DNA from: Candidatus Persebacteraceae bacterium Df01
Lineage (GTDB): Bacteria > Pseudomonadota > Gammaproteobacteria > Tethybacterales > Persebacteraceae
Direction: 5' to 3'
Length of the DNA: 64,000 bases
NCBI GenBank assembly: GCA_030386295.1
Contig: JANQAO010000001.1
Span: 261,546-325,545, forward strand
Position 1 is the first letter of the stretch; every line of letters starts with the position of its first letter. A program made the translations under genes and the position numbers. This document shows positions 5,004 through 26,885 of the stretch, one piece after another. Under the pieces are notes generated by a model. That model saw nothing but the letters and a program-made list of their open reading frames with translations, had not been told where the DNA came from and made no database searches.

Positions 5004-5054
5004 GCTTTAAATTTTTTATTGAAACAATGATTACTAAAAATTATTCTTGTTAGC

Positions 5055-6121
5055 TTAACTTGCTTGGCTCTTAATGATTCCTGCAGGCAAAGATGTAAAC
5101 AGCCATTTATAATTATTGCTAAAATCATTGCCAAAAGCGGCTTCTACGACAAATTTTGCTACGCGCTGTTCATTATAATCGCTATGCGCTCGCCGCCATC
5201 CGGCTTCGGCAGTGGTGCGCCAAGCTACGTCATCTTTTGTAAATTGTTTGATTTTTTCTATCAATTCTTTTTCGTCACTAAAGTACGAAACTTCGTCTTC
5301 GGCAAACAATGCTTTCATACTTTCATTATTAGGTGTCAATACTAGGCAGCCGTTTCCCGCTAACTGTGCTAAACGGTCGGACGAATACAGTGGGATATCC
5401 GTCGCACGACTGAGGTTTAATCCCATTTTACTTTTACTAATGAACGTACTTAATTCTGCGCTATTTAATAATGGATTGTCGCCAAAACCGAAAAACCCAC
5501 AGCGTACATCAGAAATATTTTCCAACATTGCAATATGTTTTTTCGCTCGAGCGCATTAGAGCCAATAAAAAACACGTCATAATTATGTTGTTTGGCGGCA
5601 AATGCGCGCCCAGTTTCAATGCTTGAGTCAACAATGTTTGGCAGATAATATAGTGGTGGCGATTGTGTGACGGCAATCAGAGGACTGTAGTATTCTGGTG
5701 CCATAGTGGCAAAAAAGGCGTCTAAGTACGGTTGCTTTGCGCGTAAGTGTGGCAGTTTATGTTTGGGAAACAGATCCACCCACCATTGTGCAATTTTGCA
5801 TGTTGGCAGGCAGTCTTTTAACGCGGCTAGCGTAGTTGGCATTAGTAATTCACAATGACCCAACAGGATTAAATCGGGATTAAACTGCCGCGCCACCGCC
5901 AGTAAATAATCATTCATTCTTTGCGTGCCTAGTTTTTTACCAAACCCTAAAGGTGCTAGATGGTGCGCCGTATCACGATAGCTGAAGTCCCACACACAGT
6001 GTCCGTTGCGAATTAATCCGTTGGTCATTTTTCTGTCCGTTGTATAGTAGCGTCCGATATGGTTGGAGGACTTGCGCTTAGACAGAAACCAAGAAAAATT
6101 AGCAATATGTAAAATTCGTAT
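5055..6121 (-). pseudogene. CgeB-type glycosyltransferase, start lost and frameshifted
   Basis: Frames 5465-6028 and 5055-5528 combine into a 355-residue protein if one A is restored at the A6 tract (plus-strand T6, 5538-5543): …SNALERK then KHIAMLENISDVRCGFFG. The N-terminus expected for this family (RILHIANFSWFL, then GRYYTTDRKMTNGL and IRNGHCVWDFSYRD) reads open back to an ATA at 6121-6119 where an ATG is expected; a stop lies just upstream. The C-terminal part has the usual NLSRATDIPLYSSDRL and LAGNGCLVLTP motifs. It therefore carries two separate lesions and belongs to the eroded polysaccharide island. Confidence 0.7.
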
Positions 6122-11477: not shown

Positions 11478-13508
11478 ATGAAACGGAAATTGCATTACTT
11501 TTCGTGGCGACAGGAGTGGCCTGTAGGCGCTTGCATTATTGTTATGCTGCTGACAGTGTATTGGCATTCCATGCCGCCGAGTGTGACATTTGAAGACACT
11601 GGAATAATTTCTGCAGTGTGCTACAACGCCGGTATTCAGCATCAACCGGGCTACCCGCTATACACGCTACTGTGTATTCCGGTAGCGAGGTTGGCAGATA
11701 TTCTGCCCATCAATCCGGCTCAGGCAACCGCGCTGTTTTCTGCGGCTACTGCCGCTATCGCAGCGGCACTGTTTTATGAAATTGCAAGCCGTTTGTTTGC
11801 CTTCCGTCTGTTGGCAACGGCGTCGGCGTTGACGTTGGGATTGGGCGCGCGATTTTGGTCACAAGCAATTATTCCCGAAGTGTATACGCTCAACGTCTTG
11901 TTGGTAGCGTTGACTTTATTATTGTTACTGCGATTATTGCGTGCGCCACAGCGAATTCATATTTTTTTATGGCTGTGTTTTGTTGGCGGGTTGGGTTTGG
12001 CTAATCACTGGCCACTATATGTGGCTAATGCGCCGGCTTTTATTTTGCTGTTTTTTGCTGGCGGTTGGCGCGGACTAAAGAATAAGCCGTTTGTCTGGAC
12101 AGCCGGGGCAGGCGCGTTGGTGTTAGGGCTTGCACCCTACTTGTATTTAATTGTGCGTCCGCATATAGAGCCGCCACCGTTGTCTATTTTTACAGGTCTG
12201 GAAGACTGGACGCATATTGTTGATTATGTTGCTCGTGCAGCTTATAAAAAAGAGGAAGTGCCTAATATTGAGCATTGTGTTGACAGCACTCTGTGGGGAG
12301 GTCAGTTATTGATATGGGAATATGCTTCGTTAGGAGCACTGGCGGCAGTGTTTGGGGTTTGGCGATTTTGTCGCCGCCGCCCCGTAATGTGGACTGTTGC
12401 CATGCTTTGGGGTTTGGTAGCTACTGCTCCATTGCTTGGCGTTGTGTTGTGCGGTGATAGTGAAGGTGGTGTTGCACGTACCGTTTTTGCCGCGTATCCG
12501 CTACCAGCAATGTTATTTTTGATGATTTTTGTCGCTGCCGGATTGTCTGTTTTGCCCAAGCCATTGGGAAGCGTGGTGGCTTTTTTGTTGATGGCAGTAG
12601 TGGGAGTTGTTAATTGGTCAACTAATGATCGCAGCAGTGATACGTTGGCAGAAAATTATTCAATAGCAATAATGAAAGCACTGCCACAAAATGCGGCAAT
12701 ATATTGCGGTCGAGATTCTGGCTTTCCGTTAATTTACCGCCATTATGCATTGGGAGAGCGCCCTGATATTAAGTTTGTCCGTTCCGAAAATAATTTATTG
12801 GCACTAACAGGAAAACGGCGCCTATTTTATATTGCCGCACCTTTTGACAATTACGCTCGTCACGATTGGGGTATCATGGGAGAATTGTTACCAACACAAG
12901 CCGATGGCAAAGTAGAAGCGTATATTGCTCCTGCATTAATAGATTTTTATGCTACCTTGCCGACAATTTATAATGATTTTGATGAAGATACTCGGCAGTG
13001 GGACAAAATTTTTATGCGTACGGCATTGTTTGATGTGTCCCGTATGCTGGCTACTGCTGCTCACCGACAAACATTGGCACTTTCCGCTCAAGCAGTGCGT
13101 GAGGTGGTTAGGCAAACGCCGGAAGGATTGTTTGGCGAGCTGATGGCTCGAACATTAGGATGGGCAAATCCTGTAAAACATGTGGAAATACGAGAATATT
13201 TGACTGTTCTGCGCAATATTTCGGACGATTTTTTGCCTGCGTGGCGTGGACAGTTATCGCATATGGAAGCGATATTGTATATCGGCGCTGGTCAATGGCA
13301 GGCTGCTTACCAAAAATTAGAAGAGTCTGTTGACATTGATCCATCACCCGGAAATCTGGCTGCAATAGATTTATTGCAGTTGTTAGCGCGTGATAAAAAA
13401 TGGGAACAATATCGGCAACTCCGGCAACGGTTTGCTACATTTGACAATATTTCTTTACCTCCGTTGGATGCTGCTTGCGCTGTCGCTTTGAAAAAATTGT
13501 GCCGCTAG
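11478..13508 (+). CDS. DUF2723-family polytopic membrane protein
   Basis: A 676-residue protein with about ten hydrophobic helices in the first 420 residues and a soluble, helical C-terminal part of some 250 residues. The motif TFEDTGIISAVCYNAGI with QHQPGYPLYTLL after the first helix, and FWSQAIIPEVYTLN near residue 130, mark the DUF2723 family, whose fold resembles lipid-linked-sugar glycosyltransferases (GT-C). The C-terminal half looks like helical repeats. It is transcribed alone, with a CGGA ribosome site 13 nt before the ATG and a TATTAT further up. The substrate is unknown; a surface-glycan role is inferred. Confidence 0.75.
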   Translation: MKRKLHYFSWRQEWPVGACIIVMLLTVYWHSMPPSVTFEDTGIISAVCYNAGIQHQPGYPLYTLLCIPVARLADILPINPAQATALFSAATAAIAAALFYEIASRLFAFRLLATASALTLGLGARFWSQAIIPEVYTLNVLLVALTLLLLLRLLRAPQRIHIFLWLCFVGGLGLANHWPLYVANAPAFILLFFAGGWRGLKNKPFVWTAGAGALVLGLAPYLYLIVRPHIEPPPLSIFTGLEDWTHIVDYVARAAYKKEEVPNIEHCVDSTLWGGQLLIWEYASLGALAAVFGVWRFCRRRPVMWTVAMLWGLVATAPLLGVVLCGDSEGGVARTVFAAYPLPAMLFLMIFVAAGLSVLPKPLGSVVAFLLMAVVGVVNWSTNDRSSDTLAENYSIAIMKALPQNAAIYCGRDSGFPLIYRHYALGERPDIKFVRSENNLLALTGKRRLFYIAAPFDNYARHDWGIMGELLPTQADGKVEAYIAPALIDFYATLPTIYNDFDEDTRQWDKIFMRTALFDVSRMLATAAHRQTLALSAQAVREVVRQTPEGLFGELMARTLGWANPVKHVEIREYLTVLRNISDDFLPAWRGQLSHMEAILYIGAGQWQAAYQKLEESVDIDPSPGNLAAIDLLQLLARDKKWEQYRQLRQRFATFDNISLPPLDAACAVALKKLCR

Positions 13509-21949: not shown

Positions 21950-24993
<3,044 letters not shown>

Positions 24994-25090
24994 CATAGTC
25001 ATGCGCGTTGCGATTGTAGCGAGCATGATGTGAATATGATTGATTTTATTTGTTGTTCATCAATTACGGGTTATGCGTAAGCAGACAAGT

Positions 25091-25207
25091 TGTCTGGCGG
25101 TCATAGAGAGATGGAACCACACCTTTCCATTCCGAACAGGAACGTGAAACGTCTCATCGCCGATGGTAGTGCGGGGTTGCCCGCGCAAGAGTAGGACGCT
25201 GCCAGTC
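25091..25207 (+). rRNA. rrf: 5S ribosomal RNA
   Basis: About 117 nt. The ends TGTCTGGCGGTC and GCTGCCAGTCA can pair as helix I, and the conserved internal blocks CATTCCGAACAGGAACGTGAAACG and GCCGATGGTAGTGCGGGG-like sequence are in order. It follows 23S by about 97 nt with no tRNA in between, and a strong terminator follows. Confidence 0.95.
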
Positions 25208-25222
25208 ATTATTTTCCTCCCT

Positions 25223-25256
25223 AGCCTCATCTTTTCAACAAGATGAGGCTTTTTTT
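25223..25256 (+). terminator. Rho-independent terminator of the rRNA unit
   Basis: A perfect 11 bp stem (25223-25233 with 25240-25250), a 6 nt loop (TTCAAC) and a run of six T residues. It lies 15 nt after the end of 5S and closes the 23S-5S transcription unit. Confidence 0.93.
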
Positions 25257-25330
25257 ATAGCATTGTAGAAAAATAACGGTTAAAATATAAAAAGAGTAAA
25301 AATTTACTGATAAATTTTCGCTCAAAAAGT

Positions 25331-25969
25331 ATAACGAGGCTCAGGTTATGCGCGAAGATACGAGTGTCAAAATGTTGACGCGAATCCAGTTAAACAGTAA
25401 ACCTTATCTGGTTCTATTGTTATTATTTTAAAAATTTGTAGGTGATAAGCATATGTATCAATTTACTATGACTGATAATATAAGCTTCATGCTGTAGTTT
25501 ACAGAGCTTGATTTAAATTTTACAAGGAAGAGTGGTTGTGCTAAAAAAACTTTTAGCGGATGGCTTAAGTCTTTGCATTGAGATTTTATTATGGGATTTC
25601 GGTTATGAAAATCGAATTTTTTACAAAGGCAGTGATTTAAATGTTTTTTGGGGCTGTAGGGTTTTGATTATGGCGGATAGTTGCGAGCGTATGGGACGGA
25701 ATAATTATTCTATTAAATGAAATTAAAAATAGGTTAGTTAGCATTGAAAATAAGATTAAGTTACAGAAGTAGGCCACAATTTACTTAGCCCTTTTGATGT
25801 GATAGAAGAGCATTCCATAATCCGTTGAAAGTAGTTTGAAAGGGTTGTTAGAGATATTGGAGGCGAGAATGCTGACGTTAAATGGGTGAAAAAAATGTTT
25901 CCAGAAAATCCAAGGCATCCTGTGCCATGTTAATCATAGCAGGGTTAGTTGCTTCCTAACGCGAGGTGA
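25331..25969 (+). pseudogene. Decayed partial 23S rRNA copy around helix 45 with a longer insert
   Basis: Two blocks match the real 23S in order. Block A (about 25331-25375) resembles 23S 23080-23126; block B (about 25778-25969) resembles 23239-23443, with a deletion of about nine bases and many substitutions. Both stop where the neighbouring 23S sequence should continue. They are separated by about 400 nt at exactly the position of the IVS in the intact gene, and block B begins with the 3' arm of the IVS stem. So a duplicated or left-over piece of 23S with a longer IVS has decayed here. A 62-codon frame inside the insert (25532-25720) has no recognisable family. Confidence 0.75.
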
Positions 25970-26054: not shown

Positions 26055-26885
26055 ATGGAGTCTACAATTATTAATGGACGGGCTGTTGCTGATGAAGTGT
26101 TGGCATCGTGCGCCACAAAAATTTCGCAGGGGGACGTTGTCCCCGGACTAGCCGTTATCATTGTTGGGGATAATCCGGCGTCGCAAGTTTATGTTCGCAA
26201 CAAAGTTCGTGCTTGCGAAAAAGCTGGGTTGCATTCAGAAAAATACGCCTTGTCTGTCGACGTTAGCGAAGTGGAATTATTGGGCAAAGTTGCGCAACTC
26301 AATGCTGACCCCGCTATTCACGGTATTTTGGTGCAACTTCCCCTACCCGCGCATATTAATGAAGACAAGGTACTTACCGCCATTGCCGCTCACAAAGATG
26401 TGGACGGTTTTCATCCTGAAAATATAGGGCGGCTGGTAGCAGGATTACCCGGATTACGTCCGTGTACTCCCGCCGGATGTATGGTGTTATTGGAGCGCGC
26501 TGGTGTTTCGCTGTCAGGTAGTCGAGCGGTGGTGATAGGGCGTAGTAATATTGTCGGCAAACCAATGGCATTGATGCTTATTAATGCGGGCGCCACTGTC
26601 ACCGTATGTAATTCCAAAACACCATCATTGGCGGCGACGGTGCAGCAGGCAGACATTGTTATCGCTGCTGTTGGTCGTCCGCGGTTAATTACGGCAGAGA
26701 TGATTAAGTCCGGTGCGACGGTAATTGATGTTGGTATTAACCGTGAAGATGGCGGATTAGTTGGTGATGTGGATTTTGAGTCGGTGCGTACGGTGGCGGG
26801 TGCTATTACGCCTGTTCCCGGTGGTGTCGGACCGATGACTATAGCTATGTTGGTATCTAACACTTTGCAAGCTGCTATCGCATGA
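26055..26885 (+). CDS. folD: Methylenetetrahydrofolate dehydrogenase / methenyl-THF cyclohydrolase
   Basis: A 276-residue bifunctional enzyme interconverting 5,10-methylene-THF and 10-formyl-THF with NADP. The substrate site has the Tyr-x3-Lys pair in VYVRNKVRACEKAG, the VQLPLP loop, and KDVDGFHPENIGRL; the NADP domain has GRSNIVGKPMAL and the C-terminal TPVPGGVGPMT. A TATAAT at 26018-26023 gives a short leader. The ABC transporter gene that follows starts within its stop codon (ATGA). Confidence 0.96.
   Translation: MESTIINGRAVADEVLASCATKISQGDVVPGLAVIIVGDNPASQVYVRNKVRACEKAGLHSEKYALSVDVSEVELLGKVAQLNADPAIHGILVQLPLPAHINEDKVLTAIAAHKDVDGFHPENIGRLVAGLPGLRPCTPAGCMVLLERAGVSLSGSRAVVIGRSNIVGKPMALMLINAGATVTVCNSKTPSLAATVQQADIVIAAVGRPRLITAEMIKSGATVIDVGINREDGGLVGDVDFESVRTVAGAITPVPGGVGPMTIAMLVSNTLQAAIA

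What the first reader, a model, noticed from the sequence alone, without database searches (positions are those of the whole stretch)
25331..25969. Decayed second piece of 23S carrying a longer IVS at the same site
Two blocks homologous to 23S flank an insert of about 400 nt placed exactly where the working gene has its IVS, and the 3' arm of the IVS stem is recognisable. The piece covers only the neighbourhood of helix 45. It could be the remains of a second rRNA operon, a failed IVS transfer, or a local duplication in which the long insert is the ancestral form. I know of no described case of a solitary helix-45/IVS relic beside the intact gene.
Basis: partly seen in the sequence, partly recalled or inferred. 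Interest (0 to 1): 0.75.

Follow-up and report, generated by a model that had tools for sequence, protein, structure and literature searches.

The report
Decayed 23S fragment with foreign insert
Just after its only working 23S–5S ribosomal RNA unit, this small-genome gammaproteobacterial relative keeps a dead piece of a second 23S gene that carries a longer, unrelated insert at the usual helix-45 site; a sister genus has a similar piece in the same place whose insert still encodes intact small proteins.

Summary
Window 25791-25966 matches 23S 23256-23441 (78% identity, E 2e-38) and 25286-25378 matches 23031-23127, in the right order. They flank ~410 nt of 31% G+C at the helix-45 site, where the working gene has a ~128-nt IVS. 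The relic is dead: it differs at 24 of 130 sites invariant in three working 23S genes, mostly by C>T and G>A, it has broken helices, no LSU-model match, and its IVS stem falls from -34 to -8 kcal/mol. It descends from this lineage's own 23S: 30 of 36 polarised changes are shared with the working gene. The insert has no relative, contains no S23 gene and shares nothing with the current IVS core. New here: another genus of the family has a comparable relic directly downstream of its 23S, with two intact small ORFs in the insert, plus a third, shorter piece 4.7 kb further on. A third genus has a ~1-kb ORF-bearing, non-S23 IVS in its working 23S. Best explanation: remnant of a tandem second 23S copy whose IVS allele differed, eroded during rRNA-operon break-up. 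A retained or displaced IVS-with-cargo unit is possible but unproven. Moderately interesting; not a functional system in this genome.

The parts
21951..24994 (+). Single working 23S rRNA gene
   Evidence: RF02541 2860.6 bits, model 1-2925; only full copy in the genome; 16S is elsewhere, on contig C4
23113..23266 (+). Helix-45 IVS of the working gene, with its closing stem (27 consecutive pairs; about 128 nt, 23128-23255, lies between the blocks shared with the relic)
   Evidence: Insertion relative to RF02541; arms pair at -34.4 kcal/mol; no S23 family match in the genome
25093..25207 (+). 5S rRNA gene
   Evidence: RF00001 84 bits
25223..25257 (+). Intrinsic terminator of the 23S-5S unit, immediately upstream of the relic
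   Evidence: 11-bp stem and T run
25286..25378 (+). Relic 5' block, homologous to 23S 23031-23127 (strong part 25331-25378)
   Evidence: 68% over 97 columns, score 31 vs shuffle maximum 17; 81% over 48 columns
25379..25790 (+). Long insert at the IVS site, 31% G+C, no open gene left (longest open stretch about 60 codons), no database relative
   Evidence: Six-frame reading; Pfam; no match in phages or plasmids; no similarity to the working IVS core
25791..25966 (+). Relic 3' block, homologous to 23S 23256-23441
   Evidence: 78%, E 1.9e-38; helix breaks and 10-nt deletion

Best explanation
It is the eroded remnant of a tandem second 23S copy, i.e. an rRNA pseudogene. A second 23S(-5S) copy lay directly downstream of the working one. 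It carried a different, longer IVS allele in helix 45. Everything except ~23S 1081-1491 and its IVS was deleted, and what was left drifted with C>T/G>A mutation. It no longer makes a functional RNA or protein in this genome. Shown: homology, collinearity, position, lack of constraint, descent from this lineage's own 23S, and a comparable relic downstream of 23S in a second genus. Inferred: that the source was a whole tandem copy, that both genera inherited one duplication kept alike by gene conversion until decay (rather than two events), and that the IVS differed between copies, as happens between rrn operons of one genome in Salmonella.
For: Two collinear 23S blocks far above chance. The relic differs at 24 of 130 sites invariant in three working 23S genes, 21 of 36 differences being C>T or G>A; 7 of 42 mapped pairs do not form (two of them also non-standard in the working gene) and 9 are lost to gaps, with one two-sided change, while G001 and G004 keep 39 and 37 pairs with five two-sided changes each. 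No LSU model match in the relic even at E 1. IVS stem -7.9 vs -34.4 kcal/mol. The ML tree puts all change on the relic branch (0.24) and none on the working gene; origin before the G001 split is rejected, AU p 0.039; 30 sites shared by relic and working gene against G001, 6 the other way. Same arrangement in G002: 23S end, terminator, relic. Broken-up rRNA genes: 16S unlinked here, 5S unlinked in G002. IVS content varies between rrn copies of one Salmonella genome (PMC2672173).
Against: No trace of the rest of a second 23S, or of a second 5S, is left nearby, so a small duplication of just this segment remains possible. Similar survival of the same 23S segment in two genera is a coincidence under simple erosion. 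In G002 a further piece lies 4.7 kb away, not in tandem.
Confidence: 0.72

Rival explanations
1. A short segment (helix-45 region plus IVS), not a whole operon, was copied into the spot after the rrn terminator, for instance by ectopic recombination or copying of rRNA, and this happened more than once in the family.
For: Similar segment limits in G000 (23S ~1081-1491) and G002 (~1122-1510); a third piece in G002 away from the first; five sites group relic and working gene against G002's relic, one groups the relics, which favours separate origins; no other 23S or 5S remnants near.
Against: No insertion footprint: no convincing target-site repeats around the relic; no recombinase or reverse transcriptase among the flanking genes scanned; the tree does not reject a common origin of the two relics (AU p 0.32).
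Confidence: 0.17
2. The IVS with a little flanking 23S is a maintained unit outside rDNA because its cargo genes are useful; in this genome the unit has died, in G002 it is alive.
For: The G002 insert keeps two open frames with a TATAAT box in front, one of them homologous to free-standing plasmid proteins (47-52%, E to 1e-16) and jumbo-phage proteins; its second piece carries a 113-aa membrane-type ORF and a 64-aa HTH-like ORF; G001's working IVS also carries small ORFs.
Against: Cargo differs at every site and insert cores are unrelated; the insert in this window is dead; no mobility gene found; G001 shows no displaced piece.
Confidence: 0.08
3. The fragment is a functional RNA (regulatory decoy of 23S or a spare rRNA piece).
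For: Persistence at the same place in two genera.
Against: Helices broken, no LSU model match, IVS stem collapsed, no + strand promoter-like match between the terminator and the relic, and the working 23S is complete.
Confidence: 0.03

Closest known systems
Helix-45 23S intervening sequence of Coxiella burnetii (PMC4990558)
   Same: Insertion at helix 45 of 23S, long complementary stem at its ends (28 bp there), an ORF undergoing decay, small-genome gammaproteobacterium
   Different: Coxiella's IVS lies in the working gene and encodes S23p; here the long insert lies in a dead 23S fragment outside the gene, and no S23 gene is present in the genome
IVSs that vary between rrn copies of one genome (Salmonella, Photorhabdus; PMC2672173)
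   Same: Different copies of 23S in one genome carry different IVS content
   Different: Those copies are working genes; here one copy is a pseudogene fragment
Disrupted rRNA operons of symbionts with reduced genomes (PMC7761764)
   Same: 16S unlinked from 23S-5S, small genome
   Different: That work concerns operon linkage, not IVS-bearing remnants; only the start of its abstract was read here

Membership tests
rRNA pseudogene / fragment | Significant similarity to an rRNA gene of the same genome, in order, covering only part of it | tested here: met
rRNA pseudogene / fragment | Loss of constraint on sites and helices that working genes keep | tested here: met
   24/130 invariant sites changed, helices broken; no RF02541 match
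rRNA pseudogene / fragment | Not incorporated in ribosomes | not testable with these tools
   Needs RNA data
23S intervening sequence (IVS), for the insert of the relic | Lies at a known IVS site of 23S (helix 45) | tested here: met
   Same junctions as the insertion in the working gene
23S intervening sequence (IVS), for the insert of the relic | Long complementary arms forming an RNase III-type stem | tested here: not met
   -7.9 kcal/mol, interrupted; working gene -34.4, G001 -43.5. So it is at most a decayed former IVS
23S intervening sequence (IVS), for the insert of the relic | Excised by RNase III | not testable with these tools
   Needs RNA assay
S23-encoding IVS (PF05635) | S23 protein gene in the insert | tested here: not met
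   No Pfam match to S23 in six frames; none in the genome

The most novel reading that the evidence does not exclude
In this family the helix-45 IVS is a cassette site that takes up unrelated small genes, and the IVS with its 23S shoulders is repeatedly left or moved outside rDNA, where the cargo can outlive the rRNA copy (alive in G002, dead in this window).
Probability: 0.13. Interest if true: 0.7.

Novelty: new variant of a known kind. Interest (0 to 1): 0.4.

Why it matters
A fossil of an IVS beside the living gene shows how IVS content turns over and how rRNA operons dissolve in reduced genomes. The displaced G002 copy with intact, non-S23 small genes makes it testable whether IVSs serve as landing sites for small genes.

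Tried and rejected
S23/IVP gene in the insert or genome: none. Six-frame Pfam search of the insert: only sub-threshold matches (best E 0.048), treated as chance. Insert DNA in phages and plasmids: none. Homology between insert cores: none convincing; only terminal arms and flanks are shared. Other displaced pieces in this genome: none; two further weak hits in G002 (E 0.035 and 0.067) not counted. A KTSC domain for the 79-aa G002 protein was suspected from memory; Pfam gave no match, so it is not claimed. The literature search found no described solitary helix-45/IVS relic, but the library holds open-licence papers only. Taxonomic placement of the MAGs beyond their record titles was not found.

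Full report
WHAT IS THERE. The window holds a 23S-5S unit (23S 21951-24994, 5S 25093-25207) followed by a terminator at 25223-25257. The genome (1.53 Mb, 5 contigs, 98% complete) has one 16S, unlinked, on another contig, and no other full 23S. Downstream of the terminator and upstream of folD (26055-26885) lie two blocks homologous to 23S: 25286-25378 (23S 23031-23127) and 25791-25966 (23S 23256-23441). The second is at 78%, E 1.9e-38, score 100 against a shuffle maximum of 21; the first has score 31 against a shuffle maximum of 17. Between them lie ~412 nt in place of the working gene's 128-nt IVS. Nothing else of 23S or 5S is found outside the rrn unit in the window.

IT IS DEAD. Across 130 sites identical in the working 23S of this genome, G001 and G004, the relic differs at 24; of all 36 differences from the working gene 21 are C>T or G>A. 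Of 42 model pairs 26 stand, 7 do not form (two of these are also non-standard in the working gene) and 9 are lost to gaps, with one two-sided change; G001 and G004 keep 39 and 37 with five two-sided changes each. The LSU covariance model does not recognise the relic at E 1 although it gives 270 bits to the equivalent working region. The IVS stem is nearly gone (-7.9 vs -34.4 kcal/mol).

WHERE IT CAME FROM. With G001 as outgroup, relic and working gene share 30 changes, the relic has 31 private ones and the working gene 6. The maximum-likelihood tree puts zero length on the working gene and 0.24 on the relic; an origin before the split from G001 is rejected (AU p 0.039), while sisterhood with G002's relic is not (p 0.32). 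Site patterns lean towards own-lineage origin (5 vs 1). This speaks against import from a distant donor and is compatible with an old tandem duplication homogenised by gene conversion before decay (inference), or with separate events.

RELATED GENOMES. G002 (JAHZKE010000013.1, same family, other genus) begins with the last 34 nt of 23S, then a terminator, then a comparable fragment with a ~555-nt insert holding two open frames (L024). Its 11-bp stem core is intact. The 79-aa product has relatives on Rhizobium and Thermus plasmids (47-52% identity) and in jumbo-phage proteins. About 4.7 kb further, a second piece has two more ORFs and 39 nt of 23S/IVS-arm sequence at 82% (score 25 vs shuffle maximum 18; model hit E 2.5e-11; the model was built from sequences including this one, so that E-value is not independent). 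G002's 5S is a stand-alone gene, and its working 23S is not in the assembly. G001 (JAHRAH010000132.1) has a ~1-kb helix-45 IVS in its working 23S, closed by a 26-bp stem and carrying small ORFs that are not S23, and no displaced piece. G004 (another family of the order) has no IVS.

HOW IT MOST LIKELY WORKS. It does not work in this genome. Most likely a second, tandem 23S copy with its own IVS allele was lost piece by piece, as part of the dissolution of the rRNA operon seen in this family. That the source was a whole copy is inference; a duplication of the segment alone is the main rival. The recurrence of the same segment in two genera, and the intact genes in G002's insert, leave open that insert cargo slowed its loss.

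KNOWN THINGS. IVSs at helix 45 are excised by RNase III and may carry a decaying S23 ORF (Coxiella, PMC4990558); IVS content can differ between rrn copies of a genome (PMC2672173). rRNA fragments as such are not new (own knowledge). I found no description of an IVS-bearing helix-45 fragment standing beside the gene, within an open-licence library.

Noticed in passing
L025 (G001:C170), minus strand about 11630-12680: The working 23S of G001 has a ~1-kb IVS with small ORFs (87 and 62 aa, membrane-type), hairpins followed by T runs near its start, and inverted-repeat palindromes (GTCATTCCCGCGAAAGCGGGAATCC type).
   Followed up: partly
L024 (G002:C4) 5040-5730: A third displaced IVS-like piece with a 113-aa membrane-type ORF and a 64-aa HTH-like ORF ending in the 3' IVS arm and a short 23S flank; its 5' arm was not found.
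   Followed up: partly
G000:C4 60869-62414; L038 (G002:C60): rRNA genes are unlinked in this family: 16S separate from 23S-5S here, 5S stand-alone in G002.
   Followed up: partly
window 25595-25790: The dead insert contains an interrupted reading MKIEFFTKAVI*MFFGAVGF*LWRIVASVWDGIIILLNEIKNRLVSIENKIKLQK*, which looks like the ruin of a small membrane protein with a coiled tail; no database support.
   Followed up: partly
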